From assembly GCF_014656435.1 (NCBI RefSeq), contig NZ_BNCK01000003.1, positions 248,001 through 312,000 on the forward strand: a stretch of 64,000 nucleotides of DNA, in the 5' to 3' direction. Under the pieces are notes generated by a model. That model did not search any database. It was not told where the DNA came from and saw nothing but the letters and a program-made list of their open reading frames with translations. This DNA is from Thalassotalea marina (GTDB taxonomy: Bacteria; Pseudomonadota; Gammaproteobacteria; Enterobacterales; Alteromonadaceae). The position numbers and the translations under genes were made by a program. Below are positions 20,388 to 31,976 of the stretch, in pieces; the stretch's first letter is position 1, and every line of letters begins with the position of its first letter.

Positions 20388-22013
20388 TTATTTAATTTCT
20401 CCAACATTAAATTTATCGGTGGCATCTAGAAGTTGCTCTGATAACGCATGCAAAGTTGTGCCAACACTTTTCACTTCATTTAATGAGTCTAATGTTGAAC
20501 GGAAAGATTCGTGCATGTTTGATACATTGTCGACAACCACAATGGCTACTGAAGTTTGTTCCTCTGTTGCAGTCGCAATTTGCGCGTTCATTGTGTTGAT
20601 TGACAGTATTTGTTCGGCAATTTTTTCAATGGAGGTACCCGTTTTCTTAGCGGTATCCGCGTTGTTCCTTGCCATTTCCATCGCTTTTTTCATGGCTTGC
20701 ACTGAGTCGTCAGCAGCAACTGTTAGTGCATTAAGTAATTCTCTGATTTCGTTAGTAGATTTTGCCGTTCTTGATGCTAATTCTCGAACTTCGTCTGCCA
20801 CTACCGCAAAGCCTCTGCCTTGCTCGCCTGCCCTAGCGGCTTCAATCGCAGCGTTTAGTGCCAACAAATTAGTTTGCTCTGCAATGGAGGTAATAACATT
20901 TAGAATTTGACCAACATTTTGTGTATCACTGGCAAGTTTGTCTATGGTAACGGCTGCTGCGTCTATTTCTTCACTTAACAGGCTAGACTCTCTCACGGAT
21001 GAACGAATTTGAGTTTGACTAACATCTACTTCTTTTTCAGCTTCTTGCGCGGCTTCTGCCGCTGATGCTGCGCTGTTTGATATATCTCCAACACTTAGTT
21101 TCATTTCTTCCATTGATTGTTTTACTACTTCAGCATCTTGCGACTGTTGATTTGTCGCTCTTTCTGCAGATTCCATACCTTGTAGCAATTGAGTGGATGA
21201 AAGAGTTAGAGGATCGACAACAGCGATAACGTTTTCGACAGTGCCTTTTAATAAAGCAATAAAATCATTAAAGTTTTTCGACACTAAACCGATTTCATCT
21301 TGCCCTCTGACCGTGAGTCGGGTGTTAAGACTTCCGCCCCCTTTTGCAAGTTGGTCAAGTGAATTGGCTACATCTTTTGCAGACTCGCTAATTGTTTTTG
21401 CAATATAAATAGCCAATCCAATAATAATAATTAACGAAACAACGGTTATCGACATACCCAAAGTTAACGCTGAGTTTGATCTATCTTTAGTTGTCTCTAT
21501 CAGCTGAACAAAGCGTTTATCTGCTTGTTGTTGAATGCTTCCCAATGATTCCGTTAAGGTTTGAAACTTTTCCGTTTTGTCTTTTGCTACTTGCTGAATA
21601 GTACTAAAGTCTATTGTTTCATTGATCATACCGTTAGCTATGTTTGAAGCTATGGTGCGGTAATCTGATAACAAGCTAAGATATTTTTGCGTATTATAGG
21701 CGCTATCTAAGCTATTTAATCGATTTAAATTCTCTTCAATTTGTTTAGCAGTTTCTTCTGCTTTGCTGATCAGCTCCTCGTCTCCAAATGTCACCGCCTG
21801 CGTAAATTGTTCGTCTAGCTTTTCAATCAGGTACTTATTCGCGGTAGCTAACTGGACAACTTGATAACTCACTTCAGAAACTTCTTCCAGCGAAGCTTCA
21901 TTTTCCACTAGCGTTGTATAGTTTTCTAATAACATGACCACCAATATAAGCGCGGTGATACTGGTTATAATGTGAATTTTTTTATTAATGCTTAAGTCTG
22001 CAAAAGAGAGCAT
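20388..22013 (-). CDS. methyl-accepting chemotaxis protein, four-helix sensor type
   Basis: A 541-residue chemoreceptor. TM1 is at about 14-33, a helical periplasmic domain of about 150 residues follows, TM2 is at about 188-208, then HAMP ([20 protein letters not shown]). The signalling domain has the near-invariant hairpin tip region [31 protein letters not shown]. The sensor looks like an all-helical (4HB/HBM-like) domain, not a Cache domain. It stands alone at the border between the mannoside locus and the porin pair, convergent with the TonB receptor. The stimulus is unknown. A role in sensing the locus substrates is possible only by position. Confidence 0.93.
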
Positions 22014-22104
22014 ATTTCCCCACCTTCACTTAGGTAAACGGTTTAGTTTTTATTCATTACTTTTCATCTAAAGTGTTATCTAAAATAAAAAAATTGCTAG
22101 TTTT

Positions 22105-22132
22105 TTGGACATATTTACATTTTGTCTATACT
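22105..22132 (+). promoter_or_regulatory. sigma-70-like promoter of the porin pair
   Basis: TTGGAC and TATACT separated by 16 bp lie about 70 nt before the porin start. This is a visible consensus match only. Confidence 0.5.
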
Positions 22133-22204
22133 TGGTGTGGGAAACAATAAGAATAAGCTACGGCCACTCCCAATTGAAATTGCACCAAACTAGGAAACTG
22201 TGAT

Positions 22205-23281
22205 ATGAAAAAAACACTAAGTTTGATAGCGGTTGCGACGATGTTAAGTAGTCCTTGTTCAGCCGAAATAAATCTATCTGGATTTGCCAGCATAAACGCG
22301 GGTAAAGTACTAAGTGGAACAGGAGTGCCGCAATTTGGCATTGACGAACCGACCTTCTTAGCCGATTACCCAATAGTAAGTACCTATAATGATGAAATCA
22401 CCTTTGAGCCTGAAACCTTATTTGGCCTTCAAATCTCAGCCAATGTTGGTCAAGGTTTAAGCATTATTGGACAAGTTGTTGCACGTGGTGCTGATGACTT
22501 TGATCCAACGTTTGAGTGGGCCTACTTGTCTTACGAGATCAACGAAAATTGGACAGTGCAAGCAGGTAAAAAACGTTTGCCACTGTTTTATTATTCGGAT
22601 TTCTACGATGTAGGGTACGCCTATGTTTGGATGAGAGCACCGGCAGACAACTATACATGGCAAATATTCAATTACAGTGGTGCCAATGTTTTATACACAG
22701 GCGAATGGGGCGATTGGTCTATTTCTACCAATATTTATGCTGGTCGAGAAGATGACAAAGAAAATAAATTGTTATCTGAGTTTTTCTTTAGTGAACCTAC
22801 TCGAGAAATATGGAAAGATATTGTTGGTGGTGTATTTCAAGCCAGTTATGATTGGTTTGAAATTCGCTTAACGCACATGCAATACACTAACCAACGCTAC
22901 CAGTCGGGCGAACCTGTATTATGGGATGGTAAAGACGAACGAGATGGCAAATTTTATGGCATTGCCATGAATGCGGATTGGGGGAATATTTTTGTATTAA
23001 CCGAGTTAAATCGGCTTGATTTAGGTGGTAACTTAGATACACAAATGATCACCCTTGGCTATCGATTTAACGATGTCACTCCCTACATTTCTTACGCCGC
23101 CTTTGAAGAGGACTCCGTAGGAGGTGAAGAACACAATACCACCTCTTTAGGTATTCGTTGGGACTTTCACCCGTCAGCTGCATTTAAAATCCAATACGAC
23201 GACGTTCAAGATAAGTCTTTCGATTTAGCCGTCGCAGGGGATAGTAAATCACTTACTGTCGGCGTCGACATAGTATTTTAG
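22205..23281 (+). CDS. outer-membrane porin-like beta-barrel, pair A
   Basis: A 358-residue exported protein with a Sec signal (about 20 residues ending CSA). The mature chain has alternating aromatic beta strands and ends in VDIVF, a typical barrel C-terminus. Strand motifs FYDVGYAYVWMRAP and LPLFYYSDF recur in the paralogue at 26312 (YSEVGYAYPWMRPP, IPMYYFSEY). It resembles bacterial porin families found in marine Gammaproteobacteria, but I cannot name a substrate. It is followed after 12 nt by the mini PstS-like gene, with GCAGGAGG as ribosome site, so the two form an operon. Confidence 0.75.
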   Translation: MKKTLSLIAVATMLSSPCSAEINLSGFASINAGKVLSGTGVPQFGIDEPTFLADYPIVSTYNDEITFEPETLFGLQISANVGQGLSIIGQVVARGADDFDPTFEWAYLSYEINENWTVQAGKKRLPLFYYSDFYDVGYAYVWMRAPADNYTWQIFNYSGANVLYTGEWGDWSISTNIYAGREDDKENKLLSEFFFSEPTREIWKDIVGGVFQASYDWFEIRLTHMQYTNQRYQSGEPVLWDGKDERDGKFYGIAMNADWGNIFVLTELNRLDLGGNLDTQMITLGYRFNDVTPYISYAAFEEDSVGGEEHNTTSLGIRWDFHPSAAFKIQYDDVQDKSFDLAVAGDSKSLTVGVDIVF

Positions 23282-23293
23282 CAGGAGGCCATT

Positions 23294-23704
23294 ATGAAAC
23301 ATTTCATTTTAGGTGTAGCAATTTTTGCCATGGCAACCTCAGCAATCGCTGGTGTTGATGTGATCGTGCACCCATCAAATAATAACGAAATTGACGAAGG
23401 TACTATCAAAAAAATCTTTACCGGTAAGGCAAAATCATTTGCAGATGGCAGTAAAGCAATTCCGGTAACGCAGCAAGATGGCAGTGCGGTAACCGATGAA
23501 TTTAATAGTAAAGTCGTGAAAAAATCGTCTAGTCAGTTAAAAGCATATTGGTCAAAACTAGTTTTTACTGGAAAAGGTACGCCACCAGAAGAAGCAGCAA
23601 GTGATGCAGAAATGCTTAAACTGGTTGCTAACAACCCTAATTTAATTGGCTTTGTTGAGACAGGCAAAGCGTCGGGGGATGTTAAAGTCATCAAGTCATT
23701 TTAA
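23294..23704 (+). CDS. small PstS-like periplasmic protein, pair A
   Basis: A 136-residue exported protein with a signal of about 19 residues ending AIA. The mature domain (VIVHPSNNNEIDEGTIKKIFTG, SSQLKAYWSKLVFTGKG) matches the N-terminal lobe of phosphate/PBP-like substrate-binding proteins but is less than half the length of PstS. The YWSKLVFTGKGTPP segment is characteristic of this short family. No ABC permease genes are near, so classical ABC uptake is unlikely. It is co-transcribed with the porin at 22205. A close paralogue at 27458 is also paired with a porin. The ligand and partner are unknown. Confidence 0.78.
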   Translation: MKHFILGVAIFAMATSAIAGVDVIVHPSNNNEIDEGTIKKIFTGKAKSFADGSKAIPVTQQDGSAVTDEFNSKVVKKSSSQLKAYWSKLVFTGKGTPPEEAASDAEMLKLVANNPNLIGFVETGKASGDVKVIKSF

Positions 23705-23723
23705 CGCTTAAATAACATTTAAT

Positions 23724-23752
23724 AAAACCTGCCTTAATAAAGCAGGTTTTTT
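23724..23752 (+). terminator. rho-independent terminator of pair A
   Basis: AAAACCTGC / GCAGGTTTT with a 9-nt loop and a following T-run, 20 nt after the mini PstS-like stop. Confidence 0.85.
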
Positions 23753-23939
23753 CTTTTATGCAGACTCCTGATATCTGTTTAGTTATCGCAATAACATTGC
23801 ATTGTGTTTCTAGAGCCTTTATGTCCATTTCTCATTTAAAGTTAACTGATTAATGAATATCTCAGAAGTGAACATACAAAACTTATCTAAAGTATCGATA
23901 AAACTATGAATGTCATCAAAACTAATATAAGTTCACTTT

Positions 23940-25973
23940 TTAAAACTCATATCTTAATCCAAATTGGAAATATCGTGGCAATCGTCTAACGTCAAAATAG
24001 CCGTCCGGCGCATATGTTGGATTATAGTGATTTTTATTGCCTAAATTTGATATTTTTAATATGAAAAACAAATTAGGTTGAAACACATTTTTTACGGTCA
24101 AATTTGCATCGGCAATTAAATAGCTGCCTTTATTGTCCTGCACTCTTTTGACGACATTGGTCACTCGATTATGGTACGTGTCGCTAGGATTTCTGCTTCC
24201 ACTCCAGTTTAGGCTAAGAAACAGGTTAACATCTCTTTTTTCAAAATTAAGTGACACATTAACCGTGTCTCTTGCCACGTTAGGCTGGTCGGAGTTCAAA
24301 TGAGTCAAATTAACGTTCATTGCCAAACTGTTCAAACAACATGACTGAAAAATCACTGCTTTTTCCCACTCAAGTTCAGCACCATATATCGTGGTCTTAT
24401 CATCCGAATTTTGATAAGGTCCGCCATCAAATGAACGAATAAAGTCCTTTAACTCACTTTTAAAAGCTCTTGAGGTGAGTTTTTGATTTTCATCGATGAA
24501 ATAACTCAACTCCCACTCTGTTGTCGATATACTCTCAGGTTTAACAGCAGGGTTTCCTGGAACATTATTGTCTGCTCTAATTTCATATTGTTGAATAAAG
24601 GTAGGTGGCCGAAAAGCAGAACCCCACAAAATTTTTGTAGACCAATAATCATTAGACTGCCATGTTAACCCTATGCGAGAAGATATTTGAGAGCCGAAAG
24701 TAGAGTGATAATCGTATCTTGCACCTACAATCAATTCGAGCATATTGTCCAAAAACGAAATATCTTGCTGCCAAAATGCGGCATAATTCTCTCGGCTTGG
24801 CTTATCATTCCCTTTTTGATCGAGTTTGGAGAGAATTATTTGCTGAGTGACATTATCTTTTTTATGAATAGTTTCATGATAGTTAGCTACAGACCATTTA
24901 TCATAGAACAAACCAAAATTTGTCTTTAACTCATTTGAATGTTCATAAGATAGCTTGCTATTGATCCCTAGGACTGAGGAGTCTAGATCCGATGTTGAAA
25001 AAAACTCCAACTCATTTGTTAAAGGGTCAATCACTCGATGATCAAATATTCGAGACAACTTATTGTAGTAGGCAACCGTTTTTACAGAATACGACTGTGT
25101 TTCTTTATCATGTTTTAATGAAAAGTTGTTTGACTTATATCTTTGTTCCTTGTGCTCATTGCTGCGATACAAAGGATACTCTGTCATATAGTTAGTATGA
25201 TTAAAATTAAACTGCCAGTCATTTAATTCGATCTTTAATTGGCCATATTTACTTTCTACATTATTTAAATGTGTTGAAGGTTGGCCACTTCTATCATACT
25301 GCTGCTCAAAACCATCAGTTTGATAAACTCGAGCGTTGAAAAATACATTCGCCGAACTTAACGCTAAATTTTTCTTTACACTCACTTCCTTGCTAGCAAA
25401 ACTTCCAATCTTACCTTCAAACAATTGCGGAGAAGAAAACTGCTTGGTTGTGATTGACACAATACCGGAATAGGCACTGCCGCCATAAAGCGCTGACCCT
25501 GGCCCTCTTATCAATTCAATTTTTTCAATATTTTGAGCATTAAACTGTTCATCAGGAGACCAGCCCCCGAATACGGCATCATTTTGCGGCACACCATCAA
25601 TAATCAACAATACTTTGGTATTTCTGCCACTAGTCACCCCACGGATCCAGACCATATCTCTGCCATTTCTTCTGTGGTTAATTTGAATGCCCGGAAATAA
25701 TCTGAGTAACTCAGATAATGTACTTGCGCCTGAGAGCTCTATACGGTTTCGATCAATTACACTGACAACATTTGGTGCCCTAGCCAATGATTTGTTTGAA
25801 AGAGATGAGCTCTCAATTTGTAACTGAGATAATTCTCTTAAAGACAGTTCTAATAAGCCATCGTTATTCGTTTTACTGCTAAAAGCATTACATGGAAGCG
25901 ATCCCATCATTAAAGCAAATGCCGCCACATTCATGGCTTTATGTAATTGAACTGAAGATCTCCAATACCACAT
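23940..25973 (-). CDS. TonB-dependent receptor, vitamin/siderophore-receptor size
   Basis: A 677-residue receptor, much shorter than the two at 12128 and 17508. After a weak, atypical N-terminal signal it has a plug domain (PNVVSVIDRNRIELSGASTL, ELLRLFPGIQINHR, VLLIIDGVPQNDAVFGG, IRGPGSALYGGSAYSGIVSI) of the BtuB/FepA/CirA type. The barrel ends FGLRYEF. ATG 25973 is the likely start; a TTG directly before it is an alternative. It lies between the two oppositely oriented porin/mini-PstS pairs and has no TonB or ExbBD genes beside it. The ligand is unknown. No Fur site was recognised upstream. Confidence 0.88.
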   Translation of the reverse strand: MWYWRSSVQLHKAMNVAAFALMMGSLPCNAFSSKTNNDGLLELSLRELSQLQIESSSLSNKSLARAPNVVSVIDRNRIELSGASTLSELLRLFPGIQINHRRNGRDMVWIRGVTSGRNTKVLLIIDGVPQNDAVFGGWSPDEQFNAQNIEKIELIRGPGSALYGGSAYSGIVSITTKQFSSPQLFEGKIGSFASKEVSVKKNLALSSANVFFNARVYQTDGFEQQYDRSGQPSTHLNNVESKYGQLKIELNDWQFNFNHTNYMTEYPLYRSNEHKEQRYKSNNFSLKHDKETQSYSVKTVAYYNKLSRIFDHRVIDPLTNELEFFSTSDLDSSVLGINSKLSYEHSNELKTNFGLFYDKWSVANYHETIHKKDNVTQQIILSKLDQKGNDKPSRENYAAFWQQDISFLDNMLELIVGARYDYHSTFGSQISSRIGLTWQSNDYWSTKILWGSAFRPPTFIQQYEIRADNNVPGNPAVKPESISTTEWELSYFIDENQKLTSRAFKSELKDFIRSFDGGPYQNSDDKTTIYGAELEWEKAVIFQSCCLNSLAMNVNLTHLNSDQPNVARDTVNVSLNFEKRDVNLFLSLNWSGSRNPSDTYHNRVTNVVKRVQDNKGSYLIADANLTVKNVFQPNLFFILKISNLGNKNHYNPTYAPDGYFDVRRLPRYFQFGLRYEF

Positions 25974-26311
25974 CAAATTGTTAACCCCATCCTACTATTA
26001 CTGTAATTTCAAGCCAATTTAGGCGTTTATAATCCCTTGGCACTATGAATTCACTATCAGAATTTTGTCTTTATGTGCATCATAAATAACAAAATCAAAC
26101 AGCTTAAAAAATACATGCGTATAATATAGGAATCTCGACAGCACCAGAATTCGTATTTCTTATTTATAAGATATTAGTTCACCGCAATAGCAAGTCGACA
26201 TTTTGTGTTTATTATCGTTTATTTACAGTCAAGTATGTATCAGAAAGGTTTTGAAACCTATTTATGTTTATAAATAGGCTTCAATATTAAATTATTAAAC
26301 GTGTTCAGGTA
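25974..26311. other. 338-nt AT-rich intergenic region with an imperfect hairpin
   Basis: No credible gene is visible. A 13-bp stem with one mismatch (GAAACCTATTTAT / ATAAATAGGCTTC) lies at 26253-26282 just 3' of the minus-strand porin gene. It could mark transcript termination or processing, but no clear U-tract follows. The remainder probably holds the promoter of the TonB receptor gene. Confidence 0.5.
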
Positions 26312-27448
26312 TTAAAAAACAAAATCAATACCAAAACTTATCGCTTTTGCATCACCATGATATGCCCAACCTGTTGGCTCGTCTCCTTGGTCGACAAAGT
26401 TGTCATACTGCAGCTTCAGAGCGATATTTGACATAATGTCATAACGAACCCCCACGCTTAACACATAGTGTTCTTCGAGAGCTTCTGTGGGCACTTTGCT
26501 ACGTTCATGATCTGCCTTGGAATAAACAATATAAGGCTTTACATCACCCCAATTATACACAACAGAAGCAAGGTATGTCGGGAATTCAGTCCCTAAATCA
26601 TCATCATACTCGACATAGTTCATATCAAATAAAAACGTAAAGTTTTCTAGCCAAATTGTGCCACCAAAACCAACAAACGACTGTGAGAATGGGGTGTATG
26701 GATCAATACTGCCGTCTTGCTGAATAGTTTCTCTGTCCCTATCATTTTGAAAATAAACAAAGCGTAAGTCGAAGTTATCACCTGAGATATTCCAGTTCAT
26801 GCCCAAAATATCTGTCCAAAACTCATTAACGGTTTGAGCACTTCCGCCGTACAACCTGTCGTAATACAACATTTCTACGTTGTCGTTTGAGTATTCGTTA
26901 CCATAAAAAGCGGTGATGGTACTGGATAGCTCTCCTATATCAAAGTTATACATTGCATTTATGCCATCAAACTGAGTCACTTGCCACCAATATAGATTTG
27001 ATGGTGGCCGCATCCAAGGATAGGCGTAGCCGACCTCTGAATACTCTGAAAAGTAATACATAGGAATGTTTCGGCGACCGAACATAAAAGTCAGATCGTC
27101 TTTCGCTTTATAAGTTAAATAGTACCAATCAAACTCTGGTTCAAAATCATCTACCCCTTTTGCTACCAATTGTGCGGTAAATGAAAATTTCTCATTAAAC
27201 TTATACGTGCCCTGCAAGGCCAATATTGACTCGGCCTTGATGGTTATATCATTATCATATTGACCAACATCATAAAAATCTGCCGTGAGAATCTCATCTC
27301 TTTTTTGACCAGGACTTAACGGATCATTAACAGTGCCAAATGTTTTACCAGCAATTAAAGAACCATAGCCACTTATCTGAAGAGCAGCATTAGCACCCAG
27401 CGATACAAAATACATACAAATTGAAATTGCAAATAAGATCTTATTCAT
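26312..27448 (-). CDS. outer-membrane porin-like beta-barrel, pair B
   Basis: A 378-residue exported barrel paralogous to the protein at 22205. The shared segments are GYGSLIAGKTFG, FDWYYLTYKAKDDLTFMFGRRNIPMYYFS and YAYPWMRPP, and the C-terminus is FGIDFVF. The start is one of two consecutive ATGs (27451/27448); the second has better spacing from AGGAG, which overlaps the stop of the upstream mini PstS-like gene. In this copy the gene order is binding protein then porin, the reverse of pair A. Both copies keep the partners adjacent, so a functional partnership is likely. Substrate unknown. Confidence 0.75.
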   Translation of the reverse strand: MNKILFAISICMYFVSLGANAALQISGYGSLIAGKTFGTVNDPLSPGQKRDEILTADFYDVGQYDNDITIKAESILALQGTYKFNEKFSFTAQLVAKGVDDFEPEFDWYYLTYKAKDDLTFMFGRRNIPMYYFSEYSEVGYAYPWMRPPSNLYWWQVTQFDGINAMYNFDIGELSSTITAFYGNEYSNDNVEMLYYDRLYGGSAQTVNEFWTDILGMNWNISGDNFDLRFVYFQNDRDRETIQQDGSIDPYTPFSQSFVGFGGTIWLENFTFLFDMNYVEYDDDLGTEFPTYLASVVYNWGDVKPYIVYSKADHERSKVPTEALEEHYVLSVGVRYDIMSNIALKLQYDNFVDQGDEPTGWAYHGDAKAISFGIDFVF

Positions 27449-27457
27449 CATGTTCTC

Positions 27458-27895
27458 CTAGAAAGTCGCAACAACTTTAACACTATCATCTACAACACTT
27501 GGATCTAGGTAACCTATAGCGTCTTGATTTGACGCGACCGCTTGCAGTACCAGAGCACTAGAATCTAACTCTTGAGGAGGGGTTCCCTTGCCAGTAAAGA
27601 GAATCTTTGACCAATAAGCTTTTACTTGGCTGCTCGATTTGCCAATAACCTTGCGGTTAAACTCTTGGGTAATATCATCAGTACTGCTAAGGCCAATTAA
27701 TATGGTAGACTTGCCATTTGAAAAGCTCTTAGATTTTCCTAAAAAAGTCTTCTTAATTATTGTTTCATCAAATTCAGAGTTATTAGATGGATGAACGACT
27801 ACTGCAACATCTGCCGAGACATTTCCCGTATACAACAAACTCAGTGAAATAAATAAAGGCATAACTTTCTGTAAGCTTTGCTTAAATCTTTTCAT
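27458..27895 (-). CDS. small PstS-like periplasmic protein, pair B
   Basis: A 145-residue exported protein, starting at ATG 27895 with a signal peptide ending VSA. The mature part parallels the 23294 product almost throughout (VVVHPSNNSEFDETIIKKTFLGK, SSQVKAYWSKILFTGKGTPP). It is a truncated PBP/PstS-like fold with no ABC permease genes nearby. An upstream in-frame TTG at 27934 would spoil the signal peptide and has no ribosome site. The porin of pair B follows after 9 nt. Function unknown: a ligand-delivery or sensing accessory to the porin is a guess. Confidence 0.78.
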   Translation of the reverse strand: MKRFKQSLQKVMPLFISLSLLYTGNVSADVAVVVHPSNNSEFDETIIKKTFLGKSKSFSNGKSTILIGLSSTDDITQEFNRKVIGKSSSQVKAYWSKILFTGKGTPPQELDSSALVLQAVASNQDAIGYLDPSVVDDSVKVVATF

Positions 27896-27938
27896 ATAAA
27901 ACCCTGTTGTTATCAATATTGAGGTTAGTTTCAAATTA

Positions 27939-27966
27939 ATACTAGTAACGATTCTGTTTTGTGCAA
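27939..27966 (-). promoter_or_regulatory. sigma-70-like promoter of pair B
   Basis: On the minus strand TTGCAC and TAGTAT are separated by 16 bp, about 45 nt before the mini PstS-like start. Consensus match only. Confidence 0.45.
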
Positions 27967-28144
27967 ACTTTGTATGGTAGTCTTTTTAATGAAAAAATTA
28001 AGTAAATAAACTTTTTACAACTAAACTTTAAAAAGGTTTGTGAGTTGTTAACCTCATTTTCCTATAAACTTTTGGTACAGAATTAATAGTCTATTCATCT
28101 TCATAGACTACTTTTATAGCATTGAAATTATTGTGGTTAGTTGC

Positions 28145-28921
28145 ATGTCCTACACATTGAAACTCGTTTTTTGTTTGCTGTTTTTTTCTATTTCATCTCA
28201 TGCAAAACAACAAAATCAAATCAGCGTTGTTACCGAGCATTTCCCTCCTTATCAAATAAACGCAGTTGATAGAATTGAAGGAATGGCCGTCGATATATTT
28301 TTTGCATTAAACAAACTGAATGGCGACACGTACGAGATAAATTTATTTCCATGGGCTAGGGCCTACGAGAAAGCCATAACTACCCCAAACACACTAATTT
28401 TTACTATTGCAAGAACAAAAAGTAGACAACCTTTATTTAAATGGATTGGCGATTTACCTTTTGAAGATCAACTAGGTATTTGGACAGTAGCCGATTTACA
28501 TTTAAGCTCCAATATAAGTAGTATGGATCTCAGTAATTTAACAACGGCCATACCAAGATACGATTCCAATATTGCTTTATTGAGAGAAATAGGCATCGAA
28601 GAAGGTAAACAGCTTATATATGTAAACCAATTTGAACAAGCAATAGAAATGCTTTTGCACAGGCGAATAGATTATATAGCAGCAGGAAAAATATCGATGT
28701 GCTTTCAATTAAACAAACTTAATAAAAAACTAGCTGCTTTCAAATTTACACCTCTAAACGTCAGAAAGTCCGCACCTCTGTCTTTTGCATTCAATGCACA
28801 AAGCAATAAAGAATTAGTATCAAAATATCGCTTGGCATTTAGAGAAATTAAAGACAATGGCACGCTCGATAAAATAACAAATAACTGGCTTAAATTGATA
28901 AGTAATCAATGCAAGTTTTGA
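28145..28921 (+). CDS. solitary SBP_bac_3-type periplasmic binding protein
   Basis: A 258-residue exported protein with signal peptide MSYTLKLVFCLLFFSISSHA. The mature part begins ISVVTEHFPPYQI, typical of family 3 extracellular solute-binding proteins (amino-acid-binding fold), and ends with the usual YRLAFREIKDNGTLDKITNNW. A GTG at 28133 is an alternative start; neither has a strong ribosome site. No ABC permease or ATPase gene adjoins it. Such orphan proteins in Alteromonadales may act in sensing and not in uptake. It is divergent from the porin pair B. The ligand cannot be deduced. Confidence 0.82.
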   Translation: MSYTLKLVFCLLFFSISSHAKQQNQISVVTEHFPPYQINAVDRIEGMAVDIFFALNKLNGDTYEINLFPWARAYEKAITTPNTLIFTIARTKSRQPLFKWIGDLPFEDQLGIWTVADLHLSSNISSMDLSNLTTAIPRYDSNIALLREIGIEEGKQLIYVNQFEQAIEMLLHRRIDYIAAGKISMCFQLNKLNKKLAAFKFTPLNVRKSAPLSFAFNAQSNKELVSKYRLAFREIKDNGTLDKITNNWLKLISNQCKF

Positions 28922-29068: not shown

Positions 29069-30772
29069 TTAATCGCCTTGCCATTTTTGTTTAATATGTT
29101 CAGCGACCCGAAACGCATTGGCATAAATCGTATAGGTATGGGGAACACTACCACCTGTTGGCATAAAAGAGCCGTCAGTGACATATAAGTTGTTAGACTC
29201 ATGAGCTCGACAATATTTATTCAACACAGAGGTTTTAGGATCGTTGCCAAATCGGCAACCGCCCGCCATTAAATTAGTTGGCGGGTACTGACTAACGGAC
29301 GTGGAAATATTTTTTGCGCCCATTTTTTCGAGTAACTGTGCGCCTTTTTCAGCGAGGTATTCACCAACCAATACGTCTTGCTCATGTGCGCCAATTCGAA
29401 TTTTAGCAACTGGATCACCCCATTTGTCTGTTACTTCATCGTCAAGTTCAACAAAACAATCGTCAGTAGGTAGCCAATCGTTAAACACTTCAAATCTAAG
29501 TGTTTTATAAGAAGTAAATTCTTCAAACAGATTTTTCTTGAGCGCTTCGCCCCAAACTAATGCGCCGTCTTCATCATATTGGCTGCCAGATGCTCGTGAA
29601 ATTGGGTTTCGGAAAAATAAAAAATCGATAGTGCCGCCTTTCGCTTTACCTGCTTTATTGGCACCGTTAAATGTTTTATCGTCAATTTGATACCAATCTT
29701 GCAGTGCTCTATTAAGAAACGGCCCATCCGATTTTAGTGCTTGCTGTTGCTCTGGTGTTAAATCGGAAAAGATAAAGTCCCCACGGCCAGTACCACCACC
29801 ACTAAACACCAGATTTTTGCCTACTTGGCCATTGTTGTTGGCTAAACCGTTTGGAAAAAACTTACTTTTTGACTGCAATAATAAACGGCTGGTTTCCACT
29901 GCCTGACAAGCAACAACAAAAGTACGGGCATTTACCAACTGCTTTCGACCCGCTTGGTCATAATAATGCGCCGCAGTTACAGCACCTGAATCATCACTGG
30001 CTAAATGAAACACTTTGGCATTGGGGATAATGGTTAAGTTACCTGTTGCCACCGCATGATTTAATAGCGCAGCTCTGCCACTACCTTTTGCGCCAGAGGA
30101 ACACCCATAACGACTGCAATAACCTGAATATTCGCAGCTTTGTCGTCCCATATCGGGGCGTGACAAAATAGCTCTGGGTACTGGAATTGAGTGAAAGCCG
30201 AGCTTTTCTGCGGCGGTATCAATCCACTGTGCAACAGGGTGATCAATCAATGGCGGATAAGGGAAGTCGGCCGATCTAGGCTCTTGATATGGGTGTTCAA
30301 CTACTTTACCTGACACCCCCACTTGTTTATCAACTTGAGCATAAAATGGCTCTAACTCGTCATAGCTAATCGGCCAATCAACAATGTTAGCCCCTTCAAT
30401 GTCACCAAAGGTAGATTTAAGTTTAAAGTCGACGGGTTTTAACCGGTGAAAGTAGCCGCTCATAAAATTAGAAGAGCCACCCACAACATTGCCATTCCAA
30501 AAACTCCAGTCTGACTCACTGGTCGCTTCTTTATGCCAATGTGTTTGCCCATCGTCTTCAACATGCCCTTCTTCAATCACATGTTGTTCATCAGAGAGTT
30601 TTGGGTTGTAGCTATCACGAATATTTGCTGCAAGTTCGTCTTTGTAAAAATCATCCTCAGTCAGCCAAGGGCCCTTTTCAAGTACAACAACTTTGGCGCC
30701 AGCTTTTGCAAGAATATAAGCAATAGGCGATGCGCCAGCACCGCTACCAACAACACAAATATCATATGTCAT
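29069..30772 (-). CDS. GMC-family FAD-dependent dehydrogenase, large subunit
   Basis: A 567-residue glucose-methanol-choline oxidoreductase. FAD-binding GSGAGASPIAYILAKAG is at about residues 8-24, GGSSNFMSGYF is the second flavin loop, and the C-terminal VPHTYTIYANAFRVAE carries the catalytic His/Asn pair. A cysteine cluster CEYSGYCSRYGC (about residues 213-224) resembles the region that binds a 3Fe-4S cluster in FAD-glucose dehydrogenases. It has no signal peptide of its own. It overlaps by 4 nt the Tat-signalled small subunit gene, so the complex is probably exported folded. The substrate (a sugar, polyol or sugar acid) is unknown. No cytochrome c subunit gene is present. Confidence 0.85.
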   Translation of the reverse strand: MTYDICVVGSGAGASPIAYILAKAGAKVVVLEKGPWLTEDDFYKDELAANIRDSYNPKLSDEQHVIEEGHVEDDGQTHWHKEATSESDWSFWNGNVVGGSSNFMSGYFHRLKPVDFKLKSTFGDIEGANIVDWPISYDELEPFYAQVDKQVGVSGKVVEHPYQEPRSADFPYPPLIDHPVAQWIDTAAEKLGFHSIPVPRAILSRPDMGRQSCEYSGYCSRYGCSSGAKGSGRAALLNHAVATGNLTIIPNAKVFHLASDDSGAVTAAHYYDQAGRKQLVNARTFVVACQAVETSRLLLQSKSKFFPNGLANNNGQVGKNLVFSGGGTGRGDFIFSDLTPEQQQALKSDGPFLNRALQDWYQIDDKTFNGANKAGKAKGGTIDFLFFRNPISRASGSQYDEDGALVWGEALKKNLFEEFTSYKTLRFEVFNDWLPTDDCFVELDDEVTDKWGDPVAKIRIGAHEQDVLVGEYLAEKGAQLLEKMGAKNISTSVSQYPPTNLMAGGCRFGNDPKTSVLNKYCRAHESNNLYVTDGSFMPTGGSVPHTYTIYANAFRVAEHIKQKWQGD

Positions 30773-31452
30773 GCTTTTTGAAACCTTTTACTTTGTTCTA
30801 ATGGTGCTACTTGTTTAATAGCGATTGTTTGTGTTTTTGGCGCAGTTGAATTGCTACGAGCGGGTAATTCGAAATAGCGCTTACCTTCGGGAGGTAGTGG
30901 AAAACCCATTGGATGTTGAAGCCATTGCCAGCCTATACCGTCAGGATTGCCTCCATAAGACGGAGGTGCCAGCATGGCTTCGTACATATTAACAATCAAC
31001 ATATTTAACCAGTTAGTACCTGCCTGCGAACGGCTAATACCGACAAGTACTTGCTCTTTATCTTCATTGGCTAATTGATAAAAGGCTTTATTAAAACGCT
31101 TTTGAGTAAAGCCCTCTAACCAAGTGACACCTTGATAGATAAAATCAATTTCTTGTTGTGCGCTAGGTTGAATGTGAACTAGCTGATACAAATAAAACGT
31201 CGCTTGTATTTCTTTGGCGCCAGGCCCAGAAGGAGAACTAGGTAACAAATGATTTAAAACCGCATCTAATGTTTGCCATTTGTCTTGTGTTAAGGCTTGT
31301 TGAAATTGACTAACAACGTTAGGTGTCACTTGAGCGAAAGTAGGGGTAGCCGCAACAACAGTAGCGCCCGCAGCCGCTTTGAGTACATGACGCCTCGTTA
31401 ATTTATTTTTTAACCAAGCTGGGGTTTGTTGGTACTTTTGTTCAAAATCCAT
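30769..31452 (-). CDS. gluconate 2-dehydrogenase subunit 3-like small subunit, Tat substrate
   Basis: A 227-residue protein with a twin-arginine signal (LTRRHVLKAAAGATVVAATP, about residues 18-37). It belongs to the family of small subunits that accompany GMC-type gluconate, sorbitol and glucose dehydrogenases (Pfam Gluconate_2-dh3). The stop overlaps the large subunit start (ATGA). In this enzyme class the small subunit carries the only export signal and co-exports the flavoprotein, which fits here. The gene begins 2 nt after the thioredoxin-like gene. Activity is inferred from family and gene order. Confidence 0.85.
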   Translation of the reverse strand: MDFEQKYQQTPAWLKNKLTRRHVLKAAAGATVVAATPTFAQVTPNVVSQFQQALTQDKWQTLDAVLNHLLPSSPSGPGAKEIQATFYLYQLVHIQPSAQQEIDFIYQGVTWLEGFTQKRFNKAFYQLANEDKEQVLVGISRSQAGTNWLNMLIVNMYEAMLAPPSYGGNPDGIGWQWLQHPMGFPLPPEGKRYFELPARSNSTAPKTQTIAIKQVAPLEQSKRFQKA

Positions 31453-31454
31453 GA

Positions 31455-31976
31455 TTATTCCGCCGAAACTTGTTTGATATTGGCTGTATTGTTGCTAACC
31501 TGCCATTTATCCAAAAAGCTTAACCAAGCTTTTCTTGAGTGTTCACCATCTTTATCTAAAAATTCCCCAGTATCTTTTGACAGCAGCATCTTGCCCTTGC
31601 CGGTTGATACATACATATGAGGATAGCCCAGTACCGGAGGTAAAGATTTCATAAAATCGGCGTTGTCATTGGTATCGCTAACATTAATTTTTAATAACAC
31701 GTATTTACTGTGTAACGCGTGATAAACATCTGGATTCTTTTCTAAAAACACATCCATTTTTTGACACCAAACACACCAATTTCCGCCAATTTCAATCAAA
31801 ATATTGCGATTGGTACTCGACGCTAGCTTTATCGCATCACGTGCATCAACAAAAGGGTCGCGAGCTTCATCGTATATTTTGCTATACAAAGGCAAAGTTA
31901 ACGTCTCAGCCTTACTACTCATCGCCAGCAAAGAAGTAAAAACTAAAGCAAGTGTGAGTATGTAGGATTTTTTCAT
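31455..31976 (-). CDS. exported thioredoxin-like protein
   Basis: A 173-residue periplasmic thioredoxin-fold protein. The signal peptide ends SKA (about residue 23) and the active site is WCVWC within IGGNWCVWCQKMD (about residues 68-72). Later it has a PHMYV cis-Pro-like position. It is the first gene of the three-gene dehydrogenase operon. A role in making or repairing thiols of the Cys-rich dehydrogenase is plausible, but the family also contains general periplasmic reductases. Its promoter must lie in 31977-32100, opposite the rph promoter. Confidence 0.82.
   Translation of the reverse strand: MKKSYILTLALVFTSLLAMSSKAETLTLPLYSKIYDEARDPFVDARDAIKLASSTNRNILIEIGGNWCVWCQKMDVFLEKNPDVYHALHSKYVLLKINVSDTNDNADFMKSLPPVLGYPHMYVSTGKGKMLLSKDTGEFLDKDGEHSRKAWLSFLDKWQVSNNTANIKQVSAE

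What the first reader, a model, noticed from the sequence alone, without database searches (positions are those of the whole stretch)
22205..27895. Duplicated, inverted porin plus mini PstS-like modules around a TonB receptor
Two operons each pair a barrel protein (about 360-380 residues) with a truncated PstS-like exported protein (about 140 residues, YWSK(L/I)(V/L)FTGKGTPP). Gene order is reversed between copies and a TonB receptor sits between. The short binding protein has no ABC partners. Conservation of the pairing in both copies argues for a physical or functional partnership, perhaps a periplasmic gate, carrier or sensor for the porin.
Basis: partly seen in the sequence, partly recalled or inferred. 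Interest (0 to 1): 0.6.

Follow-up and report, generated by a model that had tools for sequence, protein, structure and literature searches.

The report
Porin plus half-PstS sensory input modules
Two outer-membrane pore genes, each paired with a gene for half of a phosphate-binding protein, look like interchangeable front ends of bacterial sensing systems related to the cholera bacterium's VpvABC biofilm switch, and one of the two is probably wired to swimming control.

Summary
In detail: two same-strand pairs of a porin (358, 379 aa) and a short PstS-like exported protein (136, 145 aa), in opposite gene order, flank a TonB receptor. The partnership is real: in 40 genomes 67 of 71 short proteins have this porin family beside them, and 67 of 71 such porins have the short protein; partners co-evolve. 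The short protein is one lobe (domain II) of PstS and lacks PstS's phosphate motif. In 96 of 140 cases a signalling gene (cyclase, GGDEF-EAL, kinase, HD-GYP or chemoreceptor) lies within 400 bp; 13% of random placements do. The pair corresponds to VpvAB of Vibrio cholerae VpvABC, a predicted porin / binding-protein / cyclase module already reported without vpvC in many genera (PMC12456836). New here: interchangeable outputs and, for copy A, a chemoreceptor (20388-22013) whose sensor-domain family was found only in genomes with the pair (29 of 37 against 0 of 22). The genome's five pairs sit beside a chemoreceptor, nothing, a GGDEF, a GGDEF-EAL and a hybrid kinase. The TonB receptor is incidental; phosphate uptake is unlikely; the ligand is unknown.

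The parts
20388..22013 (-). Methyl-accepting chemotaxis protein (541 aa), divergent from porin A; probable output partner of copy A. Periplasmic domain about residues 31-190 (my reading)
   Evidence: Pfam MCPsignal 8e-40 and HAMP; sensor domain similar to 19 of 23 pair-adjacent chemoreceptors, 0 of 6 control ones; found in 29 of 59 genomes, all 29 with the pair
22205..23281 (+). Porin A (VpvA-like), outer-membrane barrel of about 16 strands, 358 aa, N-terminal signal-like helix, C-terminal F
   Evidence: Pfam Porin_4 5.8e-10, 39.9 bits; AlphaFold2 pLDDT 83.0, porin fold matching OmpT, PorB, OmpF, DcaP
23294..23704 (+). Short protein A (VpvB-like), exported single PstS lobe, 136 aa
   Evidence: AlphaFold2 pLDDT 89.8; Z 10.0 to E. 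coli PstS residues 77-209 (1pbp) and Z 14.6 to 1twy; family profile matches PstS in PDB
27458..27895 (-). Short protein B (VpvB-like), 145 aa from ATG (a TTG start at 27934 is also open), first gene of pair B
   Evidence: 48% identical to A; TIGR02136 ptsS_2 positions 122-229 of 295, E 2.6e-4, far below that model's cut-off
26312..27451 (-). Porin B (VpvA-like), 379 aa, second gene of pair B; no signalling gene beside this pair
   Evidence: Pfam Porin_4 7.2e-6, 26.4 bits against a cut-off of 27; found with porin A's family and adjacent to short protein B

Best explanation
Each pair is a VpvAB-like sensory input unit spanning outer membrane and periplasm. The porin (VpvA-like) lets a small solute in, or itself changes state at the surface; the one-lobe PstS-derived protein (VpvB-like) is the periplasmic relay, which docks on its cognate porin and on the periplasmic domain of an inner-membrane receptor, and sets that receptor's output. 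The receptor is interchangeable: diguanylate cyclase, GGDEF-EAL protein, hybrid kinase, HD-GYP protein or chemoreceptor. Window copy A most likely feeds the divergently transcribed chemoreceptor at 20388-22013, giving chemotaxis. Copy B has no receptor beside it and may act in trans or have another role. Shown: architecture, pairing, co-evolution, association with signalling genes, loss of the phosphate motif, and (by prediction) the single-lobe and porin folds. Inferred: physical docking, direction of signal, ligand.
For: Reciprocal adjacency in 40 genomes: 67 of 71 short proteins and 67 of 71 porins. Survey: 132 of 140 short proteins have the porin within 100 bp on the same strand, 77 porin-first, 55 short-first; the seed profile from the own genome's five barrels alone finds 130 of these 132. 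In 37 random loci the porin profile finds 1 of 467 genes, and that one is the porin of a separated pair in G023. 96 of 140 lie within 400 bp of a signalling gene (GGDEF-EAL 33, chemoreceptor 23, GGDEF 19, kinase 16, HD-GYP 5) against 13% of random placements; 10 of 10 neighbours that I chose for Pfam carry GGDEF, EAL, HD or HisKA/HATPase domains. Cognate co-evolution: in 41 genomes with several pairs the right porin is picked for 91 of 115 short proteins, 41 expected; rank correlation 0.69 against a within-genome shuffle mean of 0.14 and maximum of 0.36. The window chemoreceptor's sensor domain matches 19 of 23 pair-adjacent chemoreceptors at E below 1e-4 (E for a set of 23 proteins) and 0 of 6 control ones; it has 30 matches in 29 of 59 genomes, 20 of them (the window's own included) within 3 kb of a short protein, and all 29 genomes have the pair. 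Named record: Pseudoalteromonas donghaensis porin + short protein + convergent chemoreceptor, sensor domain 41% identical. A locus that looks like vpvABC by synteny (L183: porin, short protein, 412-aa cyclase, with BarA/VarS, pdxJ and recO around) is matched by profiles of the own genome's five alone: short protein 4.6e-22, porin 7.3e-35 (short protein also). [quoted passage not shown]
Against: No experiment on these genes. 44 of 140 short proteins have no signalling gene within 400 bp (the window's two are not in the 140, and copy B is of this kind). 10 of 30 matches of the chemoreceptor sensor domain lie away from a pair, and the pair-adjacent chemoreceptors of L077, L106, L156 and L181 do not match it below 1e-4; nor do those near the short proteins of L293 and L296. 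Where Pfam names the receptors' periplasmic domains they differ (dCache_3 in L064, L070, L072; dCache_1 in L078; none named in the other six), so one small protein docking on all is not obvious. Related genomes are not independent, and several genomes without the pair are small, so the counts overstate significance. In V. cholerae the effects of VpvA and VpvB are weaker than that of VpvC (PMC12456836, passage), and full deletion of vpvABC did not change c-di-GMP in strain E7946 (PMC8754643, passages).
Confidence: 0.68

Rival explanations
1. Uptake pair: a substrate-specific porin with a periplasmic carrier that hands a solute (phosphate or another anion) to a transporter elsewhere; the signalling neighbours merely respond to the same nutrient.
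For: PstS ancestry of the short protein; porin fold similar to solute porins; 12 of 20 plasmid records label it phosphate ABC transporter substrate-binding protein; 44 of 140 pairs have no signalling gene within 400 bp.
Against: One lobe only, so no two-lobe ligand clamp; phosphate motif in 0 of 140 aligned (the shorter string SGT occurs in 9); 0 of 140 pairs have an ABC-ATPase-like gene within 400 bp (motif search without its own control); 96 of 140 have a signalling gene; the genome has three longer PstS-family frames, one above the family's cut-off.
Confidence: 0.15
2. Gate or plug: the one-lobe protein closes or stabilises the porin from the periplasmic side (or helps it fold), and signalling genes are neighbours because they regulate outer-membrane permeability.
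For: Near-exclusive pairing with one porin family and cognate co-evolution; the conserved W86, G93 and P98 are not at the PstS phosphate motif and could be a docking surface (inference).
Against: Other porins of this fold need no such partner (established knowledge); a dedicated chemoreceptor sensor family and VpvC-type cyclases travel with the pair; 5 of the 8 short proteins without a porin beside them still lie beside a signalling gene, and Pseudoalteromonas Bsw20308 has one near a chemoreceptor without a porin beside it.
Confidence: 0.12
3. Remnant or chance: truncated pstS fragments that happen to lie beside porins.
For: Short length; no Pfam match at E 0.01 for window copy A, and PBP_like_2 in only 4 of 52 relatives scanned.
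Against: Matches in 39 of 59 genomes, the own included, of which two by full-length PstS only; 30 of 150 genomes spread over the phylum, the own and some full-length-only ones included; W86 in 136 and G93 in 139 of 140 aligned; confident fold; adjacency far above random loci.
Confidence: 0.01

Closest known systems
VpvABC of Vibrio cholerae (PMC12456836, PMC8754643)
   Same: Kinds and order of parts: porin, periplasmic binding protein, inner-membrane diguanylate cyclase; the paper's survey reports vpvAB without vpvC in Shewanella, Alteromonas and others. The own genome's locus L063 has the full porin / short protein / GGDEF order. Of 56 named loci found with this type, 56 have the porin just upstream and 53 a GGDEF protein just downstream. 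L183, a vpvABC-like locus by synteny, has the same families.
   Different: Window copies have no cyclase; copy A sits with a chemoreceptor, copy B alone and in reversed order. The main text of PMC12456836 has 0 hits for 'histidine kinase' and 'methyl-accepting', and 'chemotaxis' only in a legend and a reference.
YfiBNR (Pseudomonas aeruginosa; starts of abstracts PMC4655355, PMC4887326)
   Same: Outer-membrane part, small periplasmic part, inner-membrane cyclase; the cyclase of L183 is closest to YfiN/DgcN in NCBIfam (150.8 bits, below the cut-off of 325).
   Different: [quoted passage not shown] YfiR is not a PstS lobe (recalled); here outputs are not only cyclases.
PstS phosphate-binding protein
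   Same: Fold of domain II (Z 10.0, rmsd 2.5 over 106 residues with E. coli PstS 1pbp; Z 14.6, rmsd 2.9 over 118 with 1twy).
   Different: Domain I absent; phosphate motif absent; no ABC-ATPase-like neighbours.
General porins (OmpT, PorB, OmpF, DcaP)
   Same: Predicted fold (Foldseek E 3e-12 to 5e-10 in the 50 rows shown).
   Different: 10-14% identity in those rows; only 14 of 41 family members match Pfam Porin_4 at E 0.01; nearly always beside the short protein.

Membership tests
VpvAB(C) module | Adjacent porin and small periplasmic binding protein on one strand | tested here: met
   Both window pairs, 12 and 6 bases apart
VpvAB(C) module | Parts homologous to VpvA and VpvB | tested here: met
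   Indirect: profiles of the own genome's five pairs match the short protein (4.6e-22) and porin (7.3e-35) of L183, a vpvABC locus by synteny (BarA 1406 bits, pdxJ, recO). No named V. cholerae record was compared; that pdxJ/recO flank vpvABC is recalled, and varS as its neighbour rests on locus numbers in PMC12051071 (passages)
VpvAB(C) module | Diguanylate cyclase as third gene (vpvC) | tested here: not met
   Not met for the two window pairs; met for the genome's locus L063. So the window pairs are vpvAB-like, not vpvABC
VpvAB(C) module | Controls c-di-GMP or rugosity | not testable with these tools
   Needs an experiment
PstS phosphate-binding protein | Two-lobe Venus-flytrap | tested here: not met
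   136 aa, one alpha/beta lobe, aligned to the domain II stretch
PstS phosphate-binding protein | R-x-x-G-S-G-T motif of domain II (seen in 4q8r; its role in phosphate contact recalled) | tested here: not met
   0 of 140 aligned (window's two plus 138 of the 140 survey proteins)
PstS phosphate-binding protein | Encoded with the ABC transporter parts PstC/A/B | tested here: not met
   None among the window genes around the pairs; 0 of 140 survey pairs with an ABC-ATPase-like motif gene within 400 bp
Gram-negative porin (PF13609) | Pfam gathering score | tested here: inconclusive
   Porin A 39.9 bits (above the cut-off of 27), porin B 26.4 (just below); fold agrees for A
YfiBNR | YfiB lipoprotein and YfiR-family periplasmic protein | tested here: not met
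   Short protein is a PstS lobe, outer-membrane part a porin-type barrel; neither window porin nor short protein has a Yfi match in NCBIfam at E 1

The most novel reading that the evidence does not exclude
A general plug-in front end for bacterial sensing: a dedicated porin with a half-PstS relay that reports from the outer membrane to whichever inner-membrane receptor is encoded beside it (chemoreceptor, cyclase, phosphodiesterase, kinase). In one cell five such pairs run several different outputs, and copy A makes a chemoreceptor respond to events at the outer membrane rather than to a freely diffusing ligand alone. The PstS lobe has been turned from ligand clamp into protein-docking adaptor.
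Probability: 0.35. Interest if true: 0.8.

Novelty: new variant of a known kind. Interest (0 to 1): 0.55.

Why it matters
VpvABC drives biofilm switching in a major pathogen, yet its signal is unknown and what VpvA and VpvB do is open (PMC12456836, PMC8754643). If the same pair serves chemoreceptors, kinases and phosphodiesterases in harmless marine bacteria, its ligand and its docking can be found there, with simple read-outs such as chemotaxis. It would also make porins part of signal transduction. And the label 'phosphate ABC transporter substrate-binding protein', borne by 12 of 20 plasmid records with this protein, is probably misleading.

Tried and rejected
Phosphate uptake as main role: rejected on the missing lobe, missing motif and missing ABC neighbours, not excluded by experiment. 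TonB receptor as part of the system: only 2 reading frames like it (L161, L179) in the 136 survey loci, neither of them beside the counterpart pairs in G022. The SBP_bac_3 gene at 28133-28921 as partner of copy B: one similar frame in the survey loci (L108). Inverted order as meaningful: at least 12 changes on the tree (61 of 136 inner branches open, so a rough number). Local duplication: rejected. The promoter and terminator scan of 21900-28300 gave no more sites than shuffles. PDB sequence searches with single proteins found nothing useful, nor did the porin alignment. Paper searches for the pair with other outputs and for vpvA/B/C gave, among the rows listed (three lists were capped: 20 of 80, 12 of 1,518 and 8 of 12), only PMC12456836, PMC8754643 and PMC12051071 as relevant; of these I saw abstract, passages and section 14 of the first and passages of the other two. 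The original vpvC study was not found in the library. Complex prediction of porin with short protein could not be run: the structure tool takes one chain.

Rows dropped or set apart: matches with E above 1e-10 (open frames of 270-354 aa, full-length PstS-like) were not fetched as survey loci. The survey of 140 is 3 other copies of the own genome, 100 rows and 37; the window's own two are not in it. Searches use another 140: the window's two plus the 138 survey proteins with frames under 260 aa. One search uses 130 pairs (132 with a porin, plus the window's two, less 4 with an over-long short-protein frame or a short porin frame). Three of 40 random control places fell on or beside a pair locus and were left out before fetching. 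In one search the two genomes whose only match was a full-length PstS (G036, G044) count as lacking the pair. Of 20 plasmid records I looked at 8. The two structure alignments hold the window's two plus 50 and 39 of the 56 named loci. Profiles were rebuilt from the survey itself; one search gives the counts with the five-member seeds.
Full report
What is there. The window holds two pairs, each a porin and a short exported PstS-like protein: porin A 22205-23281 and short protein A 23294-23704 on the plus strand; short protein B 27895-27458 and porin B 27451-26312 on the minus strand; a TonB receptor (23940-25976, minus) lies between. A methyl-accepting chemotaxis protein (20388-22013, minus) is divergent from porin A. 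The short proteins are 48% identical and share YWSK(L/I)(V/L)FTGKGTPP.

The same genome has five. A search of the window's own genome found five short proteins, each beside a barrel of 358-445 aa. The three outside the window lie beside: a 528-aa PAS-GGDEF protein overlapping by a few bases (L063), an 829-aa dCache_3-GGDEF-EAL protein (L064) and a divergent 900-aa hybrid histidine kinase (L065); domains by Pfam. Copy A has the chemoreceptor; copy B has no signalling neighbour.

Survey. With the five as a profile, 39 of 59 genomes of relatives (own included) and 30 of 150 genomes spread over the phylum (own and a few relatives included) have matches; those weaker than 1e-10 are full-length PstS-like frames and were left out. 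I fetched about 4.5 kb on each side of the stronger matches, less where contigs end and somewhat less for the first set of 20, giving 140 short proteins in 136 loci. 132 of 140 have a barrel of one profile within 100 bp on the same strand, 77 porin-first and 55 short-first; 8 do not, 5 of them still beside a signalling gene. The seed profile of the own five barrels alone finds 130 of the 132. In 37 random 15-kb loci from the same genomes the profile finds 1 of 467 genes, and that one is the porin of G023 that lies apart from its short protein. The reverse test, searching 40 genomes with the barrels, gave 71 barrels, of which 67 have a short protein within 500 bp on the same strand, and 67 of 71 short proteins have the barrel; 26 genomes have both and 14 neither. 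The misses include the separated pair of G023 and barrels in two frames (G008, G035).

Cognate partners. Distances between short proteins and between their barrels correlate at 0.69; shuffling barrels within each genome gives 0.14 on average and 0.36 at most in 1000 draws. Given the nearest short protein of another genome, the right barrel among a genome's paralogues is picked for 91 of 115, 41 expected. This fits a pair that has been inherited, moved and multiplied as a unit; it does not by itself prove contact.

Neighbours. 96 of 140 have a signalling gene within 400 bp: GGDEF-EAL 33, chemoreceptor 23, GGDEF 19, kinase 16, HD-GYP 5; 44 have none. Random placements give 13%. Related genomes are not independent, so I draw no probability from this. 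No ABC-ATPase-like frame lies within 400 bp of any of the 140, but this motif search found only 5 in all the loci and had no control. Named records: of 56 loci in Colwellia, Alteromonas, Pseudoalteromonas, Nitrosomonas and others found with the GGDEF-type short protein, 56 have the barrel just upstream and 53 a GGDEF protein just downstream (the query was of that type). Of 8 plasmid or chromid records examined out of 20, Massilia putida has barrel, short protein, chemoreceptor and cyclase, Caballeronia barrel, short protein, EAL protein and cyclase, Pseudoalteromonas donghaensis porin, short protein and chemoreceptor. Against: P. xiamenensis and A. mediterranea have the pair with no signalling gene beside it, Saccharobesus likewise with only a weak barrel match (1.2e-10), Bsw20308 has a short protein without porin, with a chemoreceptor two genes on; the Photobacterium stretch carries no annotation and I did not read it.

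The chemoreceptor. The periplasmic domain of the window's chemoreceptor (about residues 31-190; no Pfam match) matches 19 of 23 pair-adjacent chemoreceptors at E below 1e-4, where E is for a set of 23 and several are close kin, and 0 of 6 chemoreceptors from the random loci. Searched alone in 59 genomes it has 30 matches in 29 genomes; 20 of the 30, the window's own included, lie within 3 kb of a short protein and 10 do not. All 29 genomes have the pair: 29 of 37 with it, 0 of 22 without (shared ancestry and genome size inflate this). The P. donghaensis chemoreceptor matches at 41%; those of Massilia and Bsw20308 do not. The closest relative of copy A (L084) has the same divergent arrangement. 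I take this chemoreceptor to be the partner of copy A.

The short protein is half of PstS. AlphaFold2 gives one alpha/beta lobe (mean pLDDT 89.8). The first 33 rows of the structure comparison are phosphate-binding proteins, aligned at the domain II stretch (E. coli PstS residues 77-209, Z 10.0, rmsd 2.5 over 106; 1twy Z 14.6; Foldseek); the sequence profiles say the same. Domain I is missing. The R-x-x-G-S-G-T motif seen in 4q8r (its role in phosphate contact is recalled) occurs in 0 of 140 aligned proteins, the string SGT in 9; conserved instead are F70 (137), W86 (136), G93 (139), P98 (130) and G119/Y120 (122, 126). A two-lobe clamp on phosphate is therefore unlikely; a docking role for the conserved residues is inference. 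The porin is predicted as a barrel of about 16 strands, by my count of the elements, with general-porin fold (pLDDT 83.0).

What it is. Vibrio cholerae VpvABC is described as porin, periplasmic binding protein and membrane-bound diguanylate cyclase, with an unknown signal, and a survey in the same paper reports vpvAB without vpvC in many genera, suggesting 'a conserved sensing unit' (PMC12456836: abstract, passages and section 14). Profiles of the own genome's five match its short protein at 4.6e-22 and its porin at 7.3e-35. I could not compare with a named V. cholerae record. So the window pairs are vpvAB-like; as they lack the cyclase they are not vpvABC.

How it probably works. Porin admits or senses; the half-PstS relay contacts its own porin and the receptor's periplasmic domain; the receptor gives the output encoded beside it. 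For copy A that is chemotaxis. YfiBNR is the nearest working analogue (starts of abstracts), but with different outer and periplasmic parts. What seems new beyond print, as far as reach: outputs other than cyclases, the dedicated chemoreceptor family, near-exclusive reciprocal pairing, and the single-lobe nature with loss of the phosphate motif.

What is ordinary. The TonB receptor and the inverted arrangement are local accidents: in G022 the counterparts of A and B lie about 230 kb apart with neither beside a TonB receptor, and gene order changes at least 12 times on a poorly resolved tree.

Noticed in passing
L063 6472-8433 (own genome, contig C10): The fourth gene of the vpvABC-like locus, an EAL/GGDEF protein of 604-689 aa in many named relatives, lies in two reading frames here (about 358 and 290 aa): a broken gene or an assembly error.
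   Followed up: no
L122, L147, L149, L193: The barrel gene beside the short protein is in two frames in these loci, so some pairs may be decaying or misassembled.
   Followed up: no
L085 and L209 1438-2568 (G023): One genome carries a short protein without barrel (beside a kinase) and, elsewhere, a barrel without short protein: apparently a separated pair.
   Followed up: partly
L105, L114, L127, L161: Two pairs in tandem or near-tandem in the same locus.
   Followed up: no
window 28133-28921: Stand-alone SBP_bac_3 protein (262 aa), divergent from pair B; the neighbouring reading frames do not look like ABC transporter parts.
   Followed up: partly
window 29069-31976: Large oxidoreductase-like protein, a protein with a Tat-like signal, and a thioredoxin-like protein in a row (names from reading the sequence, not searched).
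   Followed up: no
L294 4974-10372: On an Alteromonas mediterranea plasmid the pair lies near type IV CRISPR genes csf1, csf2, csf3 and csf5, so the pair can travel on plasmids.
   Followed up: no
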